In this document: positions 2,088-40,862 of the stretch, one piece after another
How the letters are laid out: every line of letters begins with the position of its first letter
Numbering within the stretch: the first letter of the stretch is position 1
Assembly: GCA_004369045.1 (NCBI GenBank)
Contig: ML213509.1
Span: 502,858-566,857, forward strand
DNA: 64,000 bases
Origin: Heliocybe sulcata
Taxonomy: Eukaryota > Basidiomycota > Agaricomycetes > Gloeophyllales > Gloeophyllaceae
Direction of reading: 5' to 3'
Translations under genes and position numbers: made by a program
The notes under the pieces: generated by a model
What the model saw: the letters and a program-made list of their open reading frames with translations, nothing else
Database searches by the model: none
What the model was told of the DNA's origin: nothing

Positions 2088-3957
2088 ATGCTGAGGAGCA
2101 GACTCAATTTTCCGAGTCTGACGCGGTCGTCTACCTTATTTCACGCGACGCGAGCCTCCTCTTCAAGCACAACTGCCAACGCCAGGCCTTCTGCTACTAA
2201 CGAGGACATCATCGAGTTATTGCGGAAAAGTGAGTCTTCCAAATAATATCAGAATCGTGCGCTAAACAGGAAAAAATAAGACGTGGCGGACGAGGGAGCG
2301 CTCCCAGAGCCACATCCATACAAACAACTTGCCTTCATCAAAGCCATAAAAGCTATCGAGGACCTCGACTACCCTGTTGCATCTCTCAAGTCGGCGGATG
2401 CTCGAAGGACAATTATAAAGGCAAAGATTGTAAGGTCTTAATATCATTCAGATGTACTAACATCGAGCCTCTCGTTGTCCCTCAGATTGACGGCGTCGGG
2501 GATGGCATAGCGCAGCGGATAGCCACGTACTTGCACGACGGAGAGGAGAGTTCGTAAGTTTTTGTGTCTACATCCACGCCTAATATTTACCTCCTCAGAT
2601 TAGGGTCTGACGCATCAAATTCAAACGTCAGCAGCCCGCTGCAAATTACAAGCGTCAGAGACCCTTCCTTATCCTCGAGTTTTGACGGGTTGTCCTCCGA
2701 GGATGACGCCAAAAGGGCGGAAGAGGAGGCGCGGCAGAGAGTCATTGCTTCTCTCCAGGTCGTCCCTGGTATCGGGTATGTCTCCTTCACATCGCCTATC
2801 TCTACCTTCTGACGAGCTTGAATATCTTAGGAGAAAGATGGCGACAGACCTTGTAAACGAAGGTTGTCGCAACCTCGATGACCTCCAAGACCCGTATTAT
2901 AGGGACCTACTCCCTCCCACCGTCAAAATCGGCGTTGACTACTTTCGCCACATCTCGCAATATGTAACCATTGAACAAGCTGACCTTGTTTCCGCGCTAA
3001 TACGCGACATCCTCGAATCAAAGTTCGAAATCCACCCAGCCGGTGCCTAGTACGTCCCCCATCGCTTTTCTTCCCTCGCTCAATTACCTACATCAACTCC
3101 AATTTGCCAGCCGGCGCAGCCTCCCAACGTCGCCTACCCTCCCTCTTCTCTTCCTCCACCCGTACTACAACCCGCCCCTAGCCCTGCCAGCCGAGACCCC
3201 GTTCGCACCCAAATACAAGGGCAGGAGGCCCGGGCGCGTGGGCTCTCCCTTTATCAAGACAAAGTCGAGCGACACGAGGATGCATGCGAGTTTGATGTGG
3301 CGGAGGATACTGACGCCGTTGGCGAGAGAGGGTGTAGTGGTGGGTGCGATGAGTCAGAGTATAGAGAGAGCGGTGGTGGTTGTGCGCCTGCCTGGCGAGG
3401 GGGAGGGACGGGAGGAGAGGGTAAGAGGGGTGAGCGAGAGGGAGGGTGTCTTTAGGAAGGCGGAGTTGCAGTGAGTCGCAGTTCCCTTCTTTGCTATTCA
3501 ACATGAATTACAGCCTACAGTTACTGAGTATGTCTGGTTATAGTCTCGCCCCATTCAAATCCAGAATCCCGGCACTTGTCGCACTGACGGGGGATGGAGA
3601 GTTTATCAAGGACCTTCAGATCCGTGCCCGGAGCCAGCTCATGCATCTTAGTGAGTATGGGCTGTGGCGGTGGGTCTGGTCGTTCTCCCCTTCTTCTTCC
3701 TCCAATTCCACCGCTACAACTACGTCTCAACCGTCTGAGGAGATTGACTCGGACTCGATAACTGATGAACTGGACGAGGGCGTGTGGGAGTGGGTGGATG
3801 TAAAGAGGGAGGACGAATTGTTGGAGAAGCTTGGGATGGCGTGGGTTGAGCCTTCCAAGAGGAACTTTGAGTTCATTATGGGCCCGGGAAGGGGATCCAA
3901 GGGGAAAAGGTCGGGCAAGCGAAGTGGGGAGGGGAGGCGTTCGAGAAAGGTTGACTG
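2088..3957 (+). CDS. Family X DNA polymerase relative with altered catalytic residues, putative mitochondrial presequence
   Basis: The gene has seven exons and encodes about 510 residues. Seen: the start at 2088 gives an Arg/Ser-rich N-terminus (MLRSRLNFPSLTRSS...) with no acidic residue in the first ~38 positions, typical of a mitochondrial presequence. An N-terminal helix-hairpin-helix follows (LKSADARRTIIKAK, then IDGVGDGIAQRIATYL). Next is a second helix-hairpin-helix after an intron (VVPGIGRRKMATDLVNEGC). Then come the palm start (IHPAGAYRRS...LLFLHP) and the C-terminal thumb (HLAPFKSRIPALVALTGD, HLSEYGLWRW, LGMAWVEPSKRNF). This order matches Pol beta/lambda/yeast Pol4. In the family the block after Y-x-R-G holds D-x-D; here it reads T-L-P. 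The third Asp (R-x-D) reads K-A-E. The exon choice around 3050-3111 is fixed by frame and by the GAY-RR junction. The protein is therefore likely non-polymerising or strongly diverged, perhaps a structural or DNA-binding factor. Family assignment is confident; function and location are inference. Confidence 0.8.
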
Positions 3958-4298
3958 AGCTGGAGTGCTCAATTGCTCTTATTTTTGACACACTAAATAA
4001 CCTATACGTATATATATACCAGTGCCAACAGTAATATGCTGAGTGGTCGTATATGTCGGATTCCCGGCTACTGCAGCAAAGTATCGGTTTGCCAGCGTGT
4101 GGCGGCGGAGCCGCACCAATTAGGCTCACCTCTATTTGCCACCACGGCCTCTTCTAGCTGCTTTCATCTTTGCAAGGGCTCGTAGGGCTGCTGTCATTCT
4201 CTGCTGTGTATTTATTAATTGCTATATGGTCTGGAACCGTGTTGCTTAAGTGTCACCTCTCCCTCTCCTTGTAACTGGTACTTCTTCTAACTGGCAAT
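3958..4298. other. Intergenic region
   Basis: The 340 bp between the polymerase X stop and the BTB A start hold the A/T-rich 3' flank of the first gene and the promoter of the second. Nothing else is recognised. Confidence 0.4.
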
Positions 4299-35066: not shown

Positions 35067-37939
35067 TTTTGCGAGGAGTTGTGTATTCCAGTTGTACTAT
35101 ATATCTGCGTCGTCTCGGGATGCTGGACTTCCGGATGGACGGCGTACATAATGTGCGTGGAGTCTAGAACGCATCATGTCCACCGCTACCGATCGCTCTT
35201 GTTTGTCCGCAGCGACGTCCCAGATTTAAGCGACGTCCCAGATTTAACTCGTCTCTAGAAGGGGAAGAAAATCGCTGGTGCTGCCGTCTCTCGTCTCACA
35301 CAGTTTTATAGAAGGCTGCAGCTATGCTGCCAGAAGTTACCCGCCGAAGGGTCCCTTGATTCTTTCCCCGACGCAGGTGACAGCTGCGCCTCAGGAACCT
35401 ATACAGCTGCCTCGTGCATTGGGCGGCTCACGTCTTTGTTCTCGGCCAGGGGAGAAGAGCTCAATATGGCCTGCAGATACAAATTTATAGAAGGTTCGCG
35501 CCACCAAACTCTCGCATGGCGGTACGTACGCTTACACATCTCTGCACCGGCCTCTGAGGAGCGGATGAACGCTCCGGCGGGAGACAGCTACGGTTGTTAT
35601 ATGCATGACTGAATGAGTAGGTGGAAGACGGTAGTGCGGCACGCATTTATAGGGACGAGCGTATTCCACCTCCGTGCTCCGCGCAAGTCCACTGGCCACG
35701 TTTCATGGAGTTCATGCGCAGTTCTAGAGGGACGGCCTGCCAGTTATAAGACGAGACGCCATGTAATATCCGACCTTGGTGAAGTGGGTGGCGGTGGAGG
35801 CTCGAGCACTCGATGAATGGCGTCCGCTGGAAATAGCCAGCGGCGTTCGCAGGCCTTGAATGGAGCAGCAGTTAATCGTTATCAGATTCCGCTCCAATTC
35901 AACCAGGACTTTGTTTGGATCTGGCCTTACAATTCAACGATGGCAGTTGCCGTTCGGACCGGTATCCTCTTCAGAACCGTGTCTACCGTACCGTCACTTG
36001 ATTGCTTTATTATAAAGGTGAGACGCTCACTTGAAACGCAGGCATTGGCGATAGGCATGACCATTCTTGCAGTGGTATACAGCGTGCCACTGGTTATTTT
36101 CGCCAACGCAGTCCGCGATCGAGTGCTGCAGCGTCGTTGACAGCATCGACGATCGAGATCTTGGGTCCGCCGATCAAGGTCCTGGTCACCCAGGAGGAGC
36201 TGGCAATCAGAGTTAAGACAAAAGATATAGAGGACAAGTATACAGCCCTGGCTCATCGCAAGAGGTAGTCAGTCTGCATTGTTCAACTCACTTAAGGCGG
36301 GGGTGCATCCAGTGTCATCGAGCGTCCCGACGGAATGGCCAAGGTATGCGGGGGCGATCGCCACCGTCGGACATGCGCTGGGCCTGGACAACATCCGTGA
36401 ATCAGGTCGTTAAGTGATAGGACGTGGCTGGGGGAGGTCTTGATTACAGAGAGACCTCAGGAAAATTGATGTGGCAGTTAGCAAAAATTCGTAATAGACC
36501 CAGTAAATTTGGAAGGAGTTTTGCGACGTGATTGGCTGGGAGCGGCCATATGAATATTCTGCGTACGATTATTCACCGGCATTGTTTCTGGGGCGATGCT
36601 CGGATCCATAATTCGAATGCAAAAAATCAGGTGTCCGAGATGGCCGCTGTGGCTAGAATTCGGCCTGTCTTCGAGGGTCGGCCCTTGGATAGATACGGCT
36701 AAACGCTGCAGTCCACATTCTTCACCCGCCCCGGGAATGAGCTCGCCGAGATAACAGTCGTGGGCTGATTCGAGTTTTTGGTATTGTTGATTGGCAGTAC
36801 AGTAATTAGAGTAATGAGCACAGCTGCAGCTGGGGCTACTCCACGGCGCGCCACAGGCTGTGCAGCGCCCCACGTAGCGGCGTTGGTGGGGCAGGAATAC
36901 ACAGAAGCTTCCTCGATCGAGATCTCTGGCCAAGAACTGACCGCCCTCGGTCCCGCACAAAACAACAATTCCCGCAAATGCCTAAACAAATGCATATACC
37001 AGCGGCGAACGCTGCTGGAACATATGTTCTTCCACCGACTGAATTGTTACAAAAGCAGTTTTTGCCAAAAGCGGTAATTTGACAGATTCGTGAAGACGGC
37101 ATAGCCGACGTCATCTTTCCCATGGGAACAATTCACCGTCCCCCTTTTCGTTACTTTAAAGACCATCCGTCATGTCATCGACTCGCATAGTCTCGTTCAA
37201 ACATTGTTACCCTGCCATATTCCATTGCACCACGCTACACGCAACTCATTACCAACACCGACACTAACTCGGCCCAACTCTCGCCAGTTTTTCCCAAGGC
37301 AAGTGTCCATGCAACGCTCCCAAATCCGCTCGAGCCCTGGTTGCTGTGCTTCGCGATCCGCTGCCGGGTTTTGATGGTGTCTACAGGCCGAGCGGTGGTA
37401 GTGTCCTCAGTCCCAAGCTAAATGCCGCTTGTTTCGACTCCGCAGCGAGGCGATACTGCCACACCAACCCCCGGCGCATACAACCCCATGGTTCTCAGTG
37501 CGTGGAAGAACCAACGAGGCACTGCCGAAGGTGAGTCTCCGCCACTCGGGATTCTCCGGCCATCACCCCGAGGGACAGTCTAGTACCGTCTCACGTGACC
37601 GTGCCCATGGGCGAATTTTCGAGTCGGTGTATGTTTCGGCTGCAGAGTATTCATAGCTACATAATATTCCTCTTCGCTCTTTTATTTCGTTGGACCCGGC
37701 ATGCTCACTTCTGTCCTTTACTAGTTCCTTTCGATCCTTCCAGCTCCCTTTCCTCTTCTCCGGGCTCTTTACGCAGTGCAGGCAAGTCCCTCTCCCAAGG
37801 ATCCGCCGCCTCGCCATATTAATCTTCCCCAGGGTTTCATGATCGTATACGAACCGGTGCTCTACAGTCTGCACCCCTTGTCCCGGACGGAGCGGAGAGC
37901 TTAGATCGTGCCGGCAAAGCGATCACTAGGCCGGCTTTG
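35067..37939. other. Large intergenic region
   Basis: These 2.9 kb contain a perfect 18-bp tandem duplication at 35211-35246 and a 107-codon ORF (35817-36140, +) with one hydrophobic segment (ALAIGMTILAVVYSVPLVIF) and no recognisable family. The last ~800 bp are pyrimidine-rich and probably hold promoter and leader of the RRM-YTH gene. No convincing gene is seen. Confidence 0.4.
35211..35246. repeat. Perfect 18-bp tandem repeat (two copies)
   Basis: The unit agcgacgtcccagattta occurs at 35211-35228 and again directly at 35229-35246. It contains GACGTC, a CRE-like hexamer, in each copy. Confidence 0.7.
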
Positions 37940-40862
37940 ATGGCAGCGGATGCCAGCGGGGACGGCTCCCAGGATTTGCAGTTGGCGAATGCATCCACAC
38001 AATCCCATACCGCGGACACTGGTAGGTCGCCAGGCCCATCAAGACTGTCCTATCCCGAGTCCAGCGCTCCCTGGCGGCAGCACACTAGGCCGGCGTTCCA
38101 GACCGCGCCTGGCCATTCATATTCTCGGACATCGTCCTCTGATACCCAACAAGGCCCCTCCGGCTTGGGGTCGCGATACACTGGCGCACCCCAACCCTTC
38201 CAAACTCGTGGCGCACCCTACGCTCAGCCCAGCGGATATGGCGGACAATACACGCTCTCCCCACAGCCAGCTGGCAACCTCCAGCCACCCCCCAGCGGCG
38301 CCTTTCCTTATGGCCCCGGGTTCTCTCATCATGGCCAGTACGTACACGAGACGCCAATGATTCCGCAAAATGCACACATGGCGTACCCGTCCGCCAATAT
38401 GCCCTCGCTCATGCACCACCACAGCAGTCCGGGGCCATCATCCATGTATGTCCACTCCCAGGCCGCACCTTCTCCGCCTTCACGGTCACCCTTGTCCTCG
38501 CCCTCCTCTCAGGGCCCGCACTCCGCATCCTACTCCGGGTCGGCGTCATTCTATCCCTCCCCATTATCCGCCTCCTCGTTTCCCTACCCAGCGCAACCGT
38601 TTTCTCCATCAACGCCGATATACCAGTCCCCATACTCGTCTCCGTCCTACCCTCCCCAGTTCATTTCGCCGGGCGAGCAGGAGGGCCAGGGCACCTGGTG
38701 GTATGTCCCAAGCAATGTCCCATCGCCAAATCAGTATGACCCCATGTCTCATACGTATCAAGCGCACTACGCCGTGCCGTACGCGTCTTTGAACCGGCAA
38801 GAGTTTGAAGGGTACCGTCGACCCGGGCCGCAATCAGTGTCCTCTGCGGGGTATCCTGTGTCGTCCCCGCTCCCTCAGGCGTCTATGGGTCAACCGCATG
38901 TCTTTGGGCCGGGACACGAGTCCGCTTCGCCATCGCTCATCTACCCCACATCTCCCGGGCCTGCTAGTTCCGAGGTCAGCGCCGCCTCAGCCCGTGCCGC
39001 CTCCAACCTTTCGTCTGCTCGTCGAGCCTACCACCCCAATCCGCCGGCGCACAGGTCCGAATGGGTAATGTGGGTCGGCAACGTCCCTGGCGACGCGACG
39101 GTGGAGGAACTCTGGCGCGTCTTCAACCAACCCAGACCGCTCACGCAATCTCCAGACTCGGACTCGAAGGAGAGCGACGCGGAAGGGCAGCTGTATGGCG
39201 GGGTGGTCTCCATATACCCCATCGTGCGCTCGAACTGCGCGTTTGTGAACTTTGAGTCGGAGGCGCACCTGCATAGCGCGATTGCGCGGTTTAATGGCCA
39301 GCAGCTGCGGAGCCATGACCCGAAGTGCCCGCGTCTTGTGTGTCGTGTGCGCGCGAAGGAGGACGACTTGCGCGCGGGGGTGGGGGCGCAGAGGGGGACG
39401 GGGGTACATACGCGGTGGGTGCGGGAGAGGAGGGCAAGGGATAGGGAGCGGAAGGAGGAGGGGGAGGAGGAGCAGGGTGGGGCGGAGCGGCGGTCTGCCA
39501 GTCCTGCAGAGTCGCCTCGCGGGCTTGCGCAGAGACTTGCGTCGTTGTCGTTGGGGAGCGAGGAGGAGGGCCGGTTCCGTCGCGGGACGAAGAAATCGAG
39601 TTCGGGGTCTTATGCTTCGACTAATTCGAGCTTTCTTGCTCGCCATTTCCCCAAGCGTTACTTTATACTCAAGTCCTTGACTCAGGTTAGTTTTCCATGA
39701 GGCTGAAGAGGACGTTTCTGATCGATGCTGTTCTTAGTTTGATCTCGATCTCAGTGTGGAGAAGGGGTTGTGGGCCACCCAACGTCACAATGAAACGATC
39801 TTGGACCAGGCGTATCGAACGAGTCGAGACGTCTATCTTATCTTTGGGGTCAACAAGAGCGGCGAGTTCTATGGCTATGCTAGGTAAGTACTGTCCGAGA
39901 CTCTCGACTTCTCACGGGATTGGTAGGCCAACACATGCTCTGTCTGGAACAGGATGGCGAGTCCGATTCTGCGTGGCGAGGAGCGCATATCTTGGGCGTC
40001 AAGAACAGACGCGTCCCCTGCGTCCTTGCGGGGACAGCGGCGGTCCGAGCCCATCCTGGAAGAAGGCGGCAGTCCTACACAAGCGCGACCGACGTTCCTG
40101 CCGCTTAGCGAACACCGTCTCGTCGACGAGTCGCCTTTGCCACTGTCGCCCCCTCACAAGCAGATCTTGCCGTCTGCTGTGGCGGAGGCCCCGCGCGAAT
40201 TCCTCTCTGCTCCTGCGGAGATGAACCAGCCACACCACCGCTTTTCGTTCCAGGCGCCGGCCCCCAAGCCGAGTCTTGATGTGCCACGGGTACTGCCAGC
40301 CGCTCCGTCTTTGTTCGGTGCTGACAAGTTTGAGTTGAAGGAGGGCCCTGTCATCGCTGCACGGGCGCGCGGTAAGTCTGGGTCATCGAGCAAGTCGAGC
40401 AAAGACAGCAAGCCTGACTCTGAAGGCGTGAAACGCATGGACATGTTGATGGACGAGTACCCTGGGTCGCCTTTGCGGACCGTCGCAGAGGAGGGCTCGA
40501 AGGAGGACTTGGGGGAGGAGGAGCCGGAGGAGGAGGCGAAACCTGGCAAGTTTGAGCGGGCGGGGGAGAACTGGGGGGAGCCGTTCCGCATCGAGTGGAT
40601 CCAGACGACGCGGCTGCCGTTCTGGCGGACGCGGCACCTGCGCAACCCGTGGAACCACGAGCGGGAGGTGAAGGTGTCGCGGGACGGGACGGAGTTGGAG
40701 CCGTCGGTGGGGCAGGCGTTGTTGGACGAGTGGGAGCGGCCTGAGCCGCCGCAGTCGCCCGTGTCGTTCAAGTACCCCGGGCAGGGCCGGCGCCCGACCG
40801 GGGAGCCCAAGTCGGCGTCGACGAATACCGCGCCGACGTTGTCGCGCAAGGGGGACATGTAG
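37940..40862 (+). CDS. RRM-YTH RNA-binding protein (YTHDC1/Mmi1-type m6A reader)
   Basis: The gene has three exons and encodes about 930 residues. Seen: a ~370-residue Pro/Ser/Tyr-rich disordered N-terminus. Next is an RRM: WVMWVGNVPGDATVEELWRV (RNP2), later CAFVNFESEAHLHSAIARFN (RNP1). A YTH domain starts with RYFILKSLTQ, crosses an intron to LDLSVEKGLWATQRHN, and continues DVYLIFGVNKSGEFYGYA and ERISWASRTD. After a ~180-residue Ser/Pro/Glu-rich stretch the fold resumes: ENWGEPFRIEWIQTTRLPF, HLRNPWNHEREVKVSRDG. The PWN-x-VK-x-RDG block matches YTHDC1 rather than YTHDF. Tryptophans in GLWATQ and ISWAS fit two aromatic-cage positions. It probably binds N6-methyladenosine RNA in the nucleus. 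The start is set at ATG 37940. Confidence 0.85.

What the first reader, a model, noticed from the sequence alone, without database searches (positions are those of the whole stretch)
2088..3957. Family X polymerase relative that appears to have lost all three catalytic aspartates
The protein keeps both helix-hairpin-helix motifs, the GAYRR entry to the palm, LLFLHP after it and the LALTGD/EYGLWRW thumb. The D-x-D that binds metal in Pol X enzymes (D190/D192 in human Pol beta) aligns with T-L-P, and the third Asp (R-x-D, D256) aligns with an E in K-A-E-L-H. The frame between GAY and LLFLHP is collinear with the family and has no room for a hidden exon. A nuclease- or polymerase-dead Pol X with a mitochondrial-type N-terminus would be a new kind of factor.
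Basis: partly seen in the sequence, partly recalled or inferred. Interest (0 to 1): 0.75.

Follow-up and report, generated by a model that had tools for sequence, protein, structure and literature searches.

The report
Fungal repair polymerase lacking its catalysts
What looks like a fungus carries, beside two normal DNA repair polymerases, a third relative whose catalytic residues have all been replaced, so it probably holds DNA (perhaps in mitochondria) rather than copying it; whether related species share it could not be checked.

Summary
Seven exons at 2088-3958 encode a 509-residue family X polymerase relative with 8-kDa domain, fingers and thumb above Pfam cut-offs, but no palm match. It aligns collinearly with six canonical Pol X sequences (84.9 bits; best of 500 shuffles 4.1). 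The metal-binding D190 and D192 of Pol beta are Thr261 and Pro263; D256 is Glu370. No splice pair tested restores D-x-D. The dRP-lyase lysine is Arg108. Each exon scores best in its own frame, which speaks against decay. New here: profile searches find two other Pol X genes in the genome, lambda-like and mu/TdT-like, both with intact triads; the window gene is no recent copy of either (21-28% identity). The N-terminus is Arg-rich and acid-free, compatible with mitochondrial import, but not amphipathic by the measure used; a basic C-terminal tail could serve nucleus or DNA binding. Best reading: a non-enzymatic, DNA-binding Pol X. Not settled: conservation in other fungi (no fungal collection available), location, structure, evolutionary origin. 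That the genome is fungal is inferred.

The parts
2088..2229 (+). exon 1: Met start; Arg-rich, acid-free residues 1-37 (possible mitochondrial presequence), then start of the 8-kDa domain
2281..2429 (+). exon 2: 8-kDa (HHH_8) domain
2486..2553 (+). exon 3: first helix-hairpin-helix IDGVGDGIAQR; Arg108 (codon 2516-2518) at the position of the dRP-lyase lysine K72 of Pol beta
2599..2775 (+). exon 4: Ser-rich linker and start of the second helix-hairpin-helix VPGIG (from 2762)
2831..3049 (+). exon 5: rest of the fingers domain (PF10391 over cut-off in the spliced protein) up to the split Tyr codon of GAYRR
3050..3110 (+). intron 5, GTACGT...GCCAG, 61 nt; splits the Tyr codon of GAYRR; retention gives an immediate stop
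3111..3470 (+). exon 6: palm; T-L-P in place of D-x-D at 3136-3144, LLFLHP from 3145, 34-residue basic Pro-rich insert, Glu370 (codon 3463-3465) in place of the third Asp
3544..3958 (+). exon 7: thumb (PF14791 over cut-off), acidic Ser-rich insert, C-terminal ELLEKLGMAWVEPSKRN matching the family, basic tail, stop

Best explanation
The gene encodes a family X polymerase pseudoenzyme: a protein that keeps the Pol X DNA-handling frame (two helix-hairpin-helix units, fingers, thumb) but should no longer bind the two catalytic metal ions, so it should not add nucleotides, and it has lost the lysine used for dRP lyase. Most likely it binds nicked, gapped or broken DNA and acts as a scaffold, an end-protector or a competitor of the two active Pol X enzymes of the same organism, more likely than not inside mitochondria. 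Shown by sequence: homology, domain order, substitutions, intact frame, two paralogues with intact triads. Inferred: loss of activity, DNA binding, cellular location and partner role.
For: Full-length collinear match to Pol X profiles (84.9 bits with six canonical sequences; 98.2 with nine). Triad T-P-E in gapless context. Further changes at active-site columns: R254->K and R283->Q, invariant in the six canonical sequences compared, and S180->A, G189->P, N279->I, which already vary among them; K68->G and K72->R (domain-1 alignment). Kept as in Pol beta: both glycines of the second HhH, G179, R182, R183, T273, G274, F278, E295, Y296, E316, P330, R333. Frame intact over 509 codons, each of 7 exons scoring highest in its own frame among six. 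Two other Pol X genes with intact D-x-D and third Asp are in the genome, so polymerase work is covered elsewhere. N-terminus without acidic residues, while the mu-like paralogue begins with a BRCT-like stretch (BRCT recognised by eye).
Against: Only one genome: no orthologue could be examined, so selection on the dead form is not shown. The helical moment of the N-terminus is below the shuffled mean, 82% of shuffles reaching it. No structure: the predictor was busy, failed, then was switched off.
Confidence: 0.62

Rival explanations
1. A pseudogene or young relic: a Pol X copy decaying in this species only, with relatives that are normal enzymes.
For: Half of the family-invariant columns are changed (15 of 30) and no orthologue was seen.
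Against: No stop or frameshift in 7 exons, all six introns GT-AG, coding score of each exon best in frame, palm exon included (0.162 against 0.090-0.282 in the eight other window frames listed, which were themselves part of the training set); 21-28% identity to the paralogues means long divergence with an open frame.
Confidence: 0.12
2. An enzyme after all: the palm uses another acid set (Glu370 and others) for weak or different nucleotidyl transfer.
For: Glu370 keeps an acid at the third position; E-x-E strings stand in the coding frame at 3397 and 3436; PMC9226535 (passage seen) notes that activity was once reported for a Deinococcus Pol X with an A-E-E triad.
Against: Thr and Pro replace both D-x-D acids and there is no D/E in residues 247-269; the E-x-E strings lie in the linker before the third-Asp strand, not at the D-x-D position; the same paper presents noncanonical Pol X as lacking polymerase activity.
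Confidence: 0.1
3. A nuclear, not mitochondrial, accessory factor, for instance a modulator of end joining by the lambda- and mu-like enzymes.
For: Basic C-terminal tail with 10 K/R in 28 residues and a bipartite-signal-like stretch at residue 477; N-terminus not amphipathic.
Against: No BRCT match in the protein; acid-free Arg-rich N-terminus directly before the 8-kDa domain.
Confidence: 0.16

Closest known systems
Eukaryotic Pol X enzymes (Pol beta, lambda, mu/TdT, fungal Pol4)
   Same: 8-kDa HhH, fingers HhH, palm strands, thumb and C-terminal motif in the same order
   Different: metal-binding triad D-D-D is T-P-E; lyase Lys is Arg (it is also absent from mu and C10); other active-site columns changed; no BRCT match
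Mitochondrial-type Pol beta of trypanosomatids (4p4m, named DNA polymerase beta; that it is from Leishmania and mitochondrial is recalled)
   Same: best hit among solved structures (E 1.5e-5); highest identity in the seven-sequence alignment (27% over 190 columns); shares EYGL in the thumb, which the three prokaryotic PolX compared show as EYGL or EYGA
   Different: that enzyme has D-V-D and R-V-D; the grouping has only 63% support and dissolves when prokaryotic sequences are added
Noncanonical prokaryotic PolX (Prostova et al. 2022, PMC9226535; passages read)
   Same: substituted triad in conserved context, changed dNTP site, polymerase activity lost (in this protein inferred only)
   Different: those keep a C-terminal PHP exonuclease and show deletions in palm and fingers; this protein has no PHP match and has insertions instead
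The organism's own lambda-like (C18) and mu/TdT-like (C10) Pol X
   Same: same polymerase domains, same genome
   Different: both have intact triads; identity to the window protein 21% over 309 aa (C18) and 28% over 108 aa (C10)

Membership tests
Family X DNA polymerase (as an enzyme) | three catalytic Asp (D-x-D and R-x-D) | tested here: not met
   T261, P263, E370
Family X DNA polymerase (as a protein family) | 8-kDa HhH, fingers and thumb domains in order | tested here: met
   PF14716, PF10391, PF14791 all over cut-off in the spliced protein
Family X DNA polymerase (as a protein family) | palm of nucleotidyltransferase fold | tested here: inconclusive
   no PF14792 match, but the profile alignments carry on through GAYRR, LPLLFLHP, ERAVVVVRLP and FRKAELHLAP; fold not modelled
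Pol X with dRP lyase (Pol beta, lambda) | Schiff-base lysine (K72 of Pol beta; role recalled) | tested here: not met
   Arg108 in the domain-1 alignment; the global alignment left this column blank
Pol lambda / mu / TdT | N-terminal BRCT domain | tested here: not met
   HHH_8 starts at residue 37; no BRCT among the 8 families listed
Noncanonical prokaryotic PolX | C-terminal PHP exonuclease | tested here: not met
   no PHP among the 8 families listed
Noncanonical prokaryotic PolX | altered catalytic triad in conserved context | tested here: met
   definition from PMC9226535 (passages)
Noncanonical prokaryotic PolX | loss of polymerase activity | not testable with these tools
   needs an assay
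Mitochondrial protein | cleavable presequence and matrix location | tested here: inconclusive
   5 Arg, 0 acids in 37 residues, R-2 type sites after 14, 23 and 34; helical moment below the shuffled mean; no dedicated predictor available

The most novel reading that the evidence does not exclude
A third, BRCT-less Pol X lineage (of beta or mitochondrial type) survives in this group of fungi, although multicellular fungi are described as lacking Pol beta, and has been turned as a whole clade into a non-catalytic mitochondrial DNA factor: a eukaryotic counterpart of the polymerase-dead prokaryotic PolX.
Probability: 0.25. Interest if true: 0.75.

Novelty: new variant of a known kind. Interest (0 to 1): 0.5.

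Why it matters
PMC12828229 (passages and section 21 read) describes multicellular fungi as lacking Pol beta and TdT and having two Pol X, precursors of mu and lambda. A third one with every catalytic position replaced would be a natural separation-of-function protein: it would show what the Pol X frame does on DNA without synthesis and, if mitochondrial, point to a DNA maintenance factor that my literature searches did not find described in fungi.

Tried and rejected
Hidden exon or other splicing to restore D-x-D: none of the joined pairs gave it. The only D-x-D string in the forward frames of 2950-3544 (DTD at 3306) lies in another frame; the coding frame has two E-x-E strings, at 3397 and 3436, away from the D-x-D position. 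Recent duplication from a paralogue: set aside because of 21-28% identity. Second copy of the thumb exon in the genome: only itself at E<=10. NCBIfam: two weak matches to unrelated HhH proteins only.

Orthologues: whole protein in genome contigs (76 pattern stretches, none a relative) and viral contigs (10 stretches, none), thumb exon in viral contigs (10, none), tblastn in plasmids (none at E<=10), motif patterns (0 in viral; 10 bacterial or archaeal stretches in genome contigs, which match the protein only around the motif, apart from one stray 22-residue piece, best E 0.14; 0 in viral). These collections are prokaryotic, viral or plasmid, so absence says little.

Placement by tree: unresolved. 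Seven sequences: the protein groups with the Leishmania-type beta (63% support), AU does not reject mu (0.23) or lambda (0.17). Ten sequences: AU rejects lambda (0.016), not mu (0.41), Leishmania type (0.57), beta (0.37) or prokaryotic (0.34). It is the longest branch in both.

Fisher test of contact against other invariant columns: not significant.

Intron positions near GAYRR and in the second HhH lie within a few codons of those of paralogues but at other places or phases; read by eye and not used.

Papers. Searches: 4 papers; 0; 15 of 16 listed; 1; 0; 10 of 14; 15 of 1,179; 10 of 339; 12 of 27. No title or abstract start listed names a catalytically dead Pol X of fungi; the library lacks most subscription journals. 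Read: passages of PMC9226535 and PMC12828229 with section 21 of the latter; passages of PMC11646218, which gave nothing used here. Sakamoto et al. 2007 on Coprinus was seen only as a reference.

Full report
What is there. The window is C7:502858-566857 of a 31.6-Mb genome in 51 contigs. Joining seven exons by GT-AG introns gives one open frame of 509 codons at 2088-3958. The first two joints are supported from outside, as the HHH_8 match (residues 37-117) runs over them; fingers (173-220) and thumb (382-479) also pass their Pfam cut-offs, while no palm family is among the 8 listed at E<=10. Phmmer against solved structures gives 70 distinct sequences at E<=1; the 60 shown are Pol beta, lambda or mu, best 4p4m at 1.5e-5.

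The active site. In phmmer alignments GAYRRSLPTSPTLPLLFLHP pairs without gaps with [20 protein letters not shown] and RKAELHLAP with RRIDIRLIP. A profile from six canonical sequences matches the protein in three collinear pieces, 84.9 bits in all, against a best of 4.1 in 500 shuffles, 196 of which were reported; adding three prokaryotic PolX raises it to 98.2 bits. The column inventory: D190->T261, D192->P263, D256->E370, R254->K and R283->Q, all invariant in the six canonical sequences; S180->A, G189->P, Y271->A, F272->L and N279->I, where the canonical sequences already differ among themselves. Kept as in Pol beta are G179, R182, R183, T273, G274, F278, E295, Y296, E316, P330, R333 and the glycines of the second HhH. 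hmmalign left the 8-kDa columns blank, so those were read from the domain-1 alignment: K68->G, K72->R. The roles given to these residues are recalled from the Pol beta literature. From any Asp codon, T261 (ACC) and P263 (CCT) need at least two changes each and E370 (GAG) one (codons); this is no single error. Counted over the 30 columns invariant in five canonical enzymes, 15 are kept, and contact residues are not lost significantly more than others (2 of 7 kept against 13 of 23, P = 0.39): the protein has drifted as a whole, not only in the active site.

Is it a living gene? Codon scores trained on 13 long open frames of the window (4707 codons) are highest in the proposed frame for each of the 7 exons among all six frames; the palm exon scores 0.162, against 0.090-0.282 for the eight training frames listed. 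The training frames are mechanical, not all proven genes, and were scored with their own data. There is no stop or frameshift. This speaks against decay but is not a test of selection.

Paralogues. Profile searches of the genome with thumb (3 matches), fingers (3), palm (4 pieces in 2 genes) and HHH_8 (2) point to three loci: this one, C10 and C18. The palm and HHH_8 searches ring at C10 and C18 only; the HHH_8 domain of the window gene is split over three exons and is seen only in the spliced protein. The tool calls such counts lower bounds. Hand-built models: C18, lambda-like (core of 351 aa only), with GSYRRGKADCGDIDILIT, RRIDF and the lyase lysine; C10, mu/TdT-like, 645 aa, with GGHRRGKSMSNDVDIVF and RRVDLIF. 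Their best solved relatives are Pol lambda (8.6e-67) and Pol mu (5.1e-43). The window protein shares 21% over 309 aa with C18 and 28% over 108 aa with C10. So it is the third Pol X of this organism. Trees leave its origin open; only sisterhood to lambda is disfavoured, and only in one of two data sets.

Where it works. Residues 1-37 hold 5 Arg and no Asp or Glu (P about 0.003 from its own composition; no other stretch but the one starting at residue 2 meets a slightly laxer rule), with R-2 type cleavage sites, but the helical moment is not above shuffled (82% of shuffles reach it). The last 28 residues hold 10 K/R. I lean to mitochondria without certainty.

How it most likely works. Without the metal-binding acids a Pol X should not do two-metal nucleotidyl transfer (established for the family; PMC9226535, passages read, calls the triad essential), and without the lysine not the usual dRP-lyase step. 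What is left is a DNA-holding frame with two HhH units, thumb and basic additions. The simplest role is binding of nicked, gapped or broken DNA, to protect it, recruit others or compete with the active enzymes. That role is inferred.

Novelty. Polymerase-dead PolX are published for prokaryotes, where a PHP exonuclease carries a function (PMC9226535, passages). For multicellular fungi PMC12828229 (passages and section 21 read) describes two Pol X, mu and lambda precursors, and names lambda and mu of Coprinus. My searches listed no dead fungal Pol X; this covers only an open-licence library, and only the listed titles and abstract starts. Hence: new variant of a known kind, worth following once orthologues are seen.

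Noticed in passing
2080-2094: A short upstream frame (four codons plus stop: ATG CAT AAA TGC TGA) overlaps the main start at 2088; it could damp translation (read).
   Followed up: no
3-407 and 376-819, - strand: Head-to-head neighbour with SNF5/SMARCB1 matches (PF04855, E 1e-29 and 3.8e-31); the two genes may share a promoter.
   Followed up: partly
37823-40859: Open frames with a YTH1-like RRM and a YTH domain, perhaps one m6A-reader gene.
   Followed up: no
3042-3111, with L008 and L009: All three Pol X gene models have an intron within about three codons of the GxxRR motif, each at a slightly different place (read by eye).
   Followed up: partly
protein residues 270-303 and 416-455: Two stretches without counterpart in the canonical sequences compared: a basic Pro-rich one in the palm and an acidic Ser-rich one in the thumb.
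   Followed up: partly
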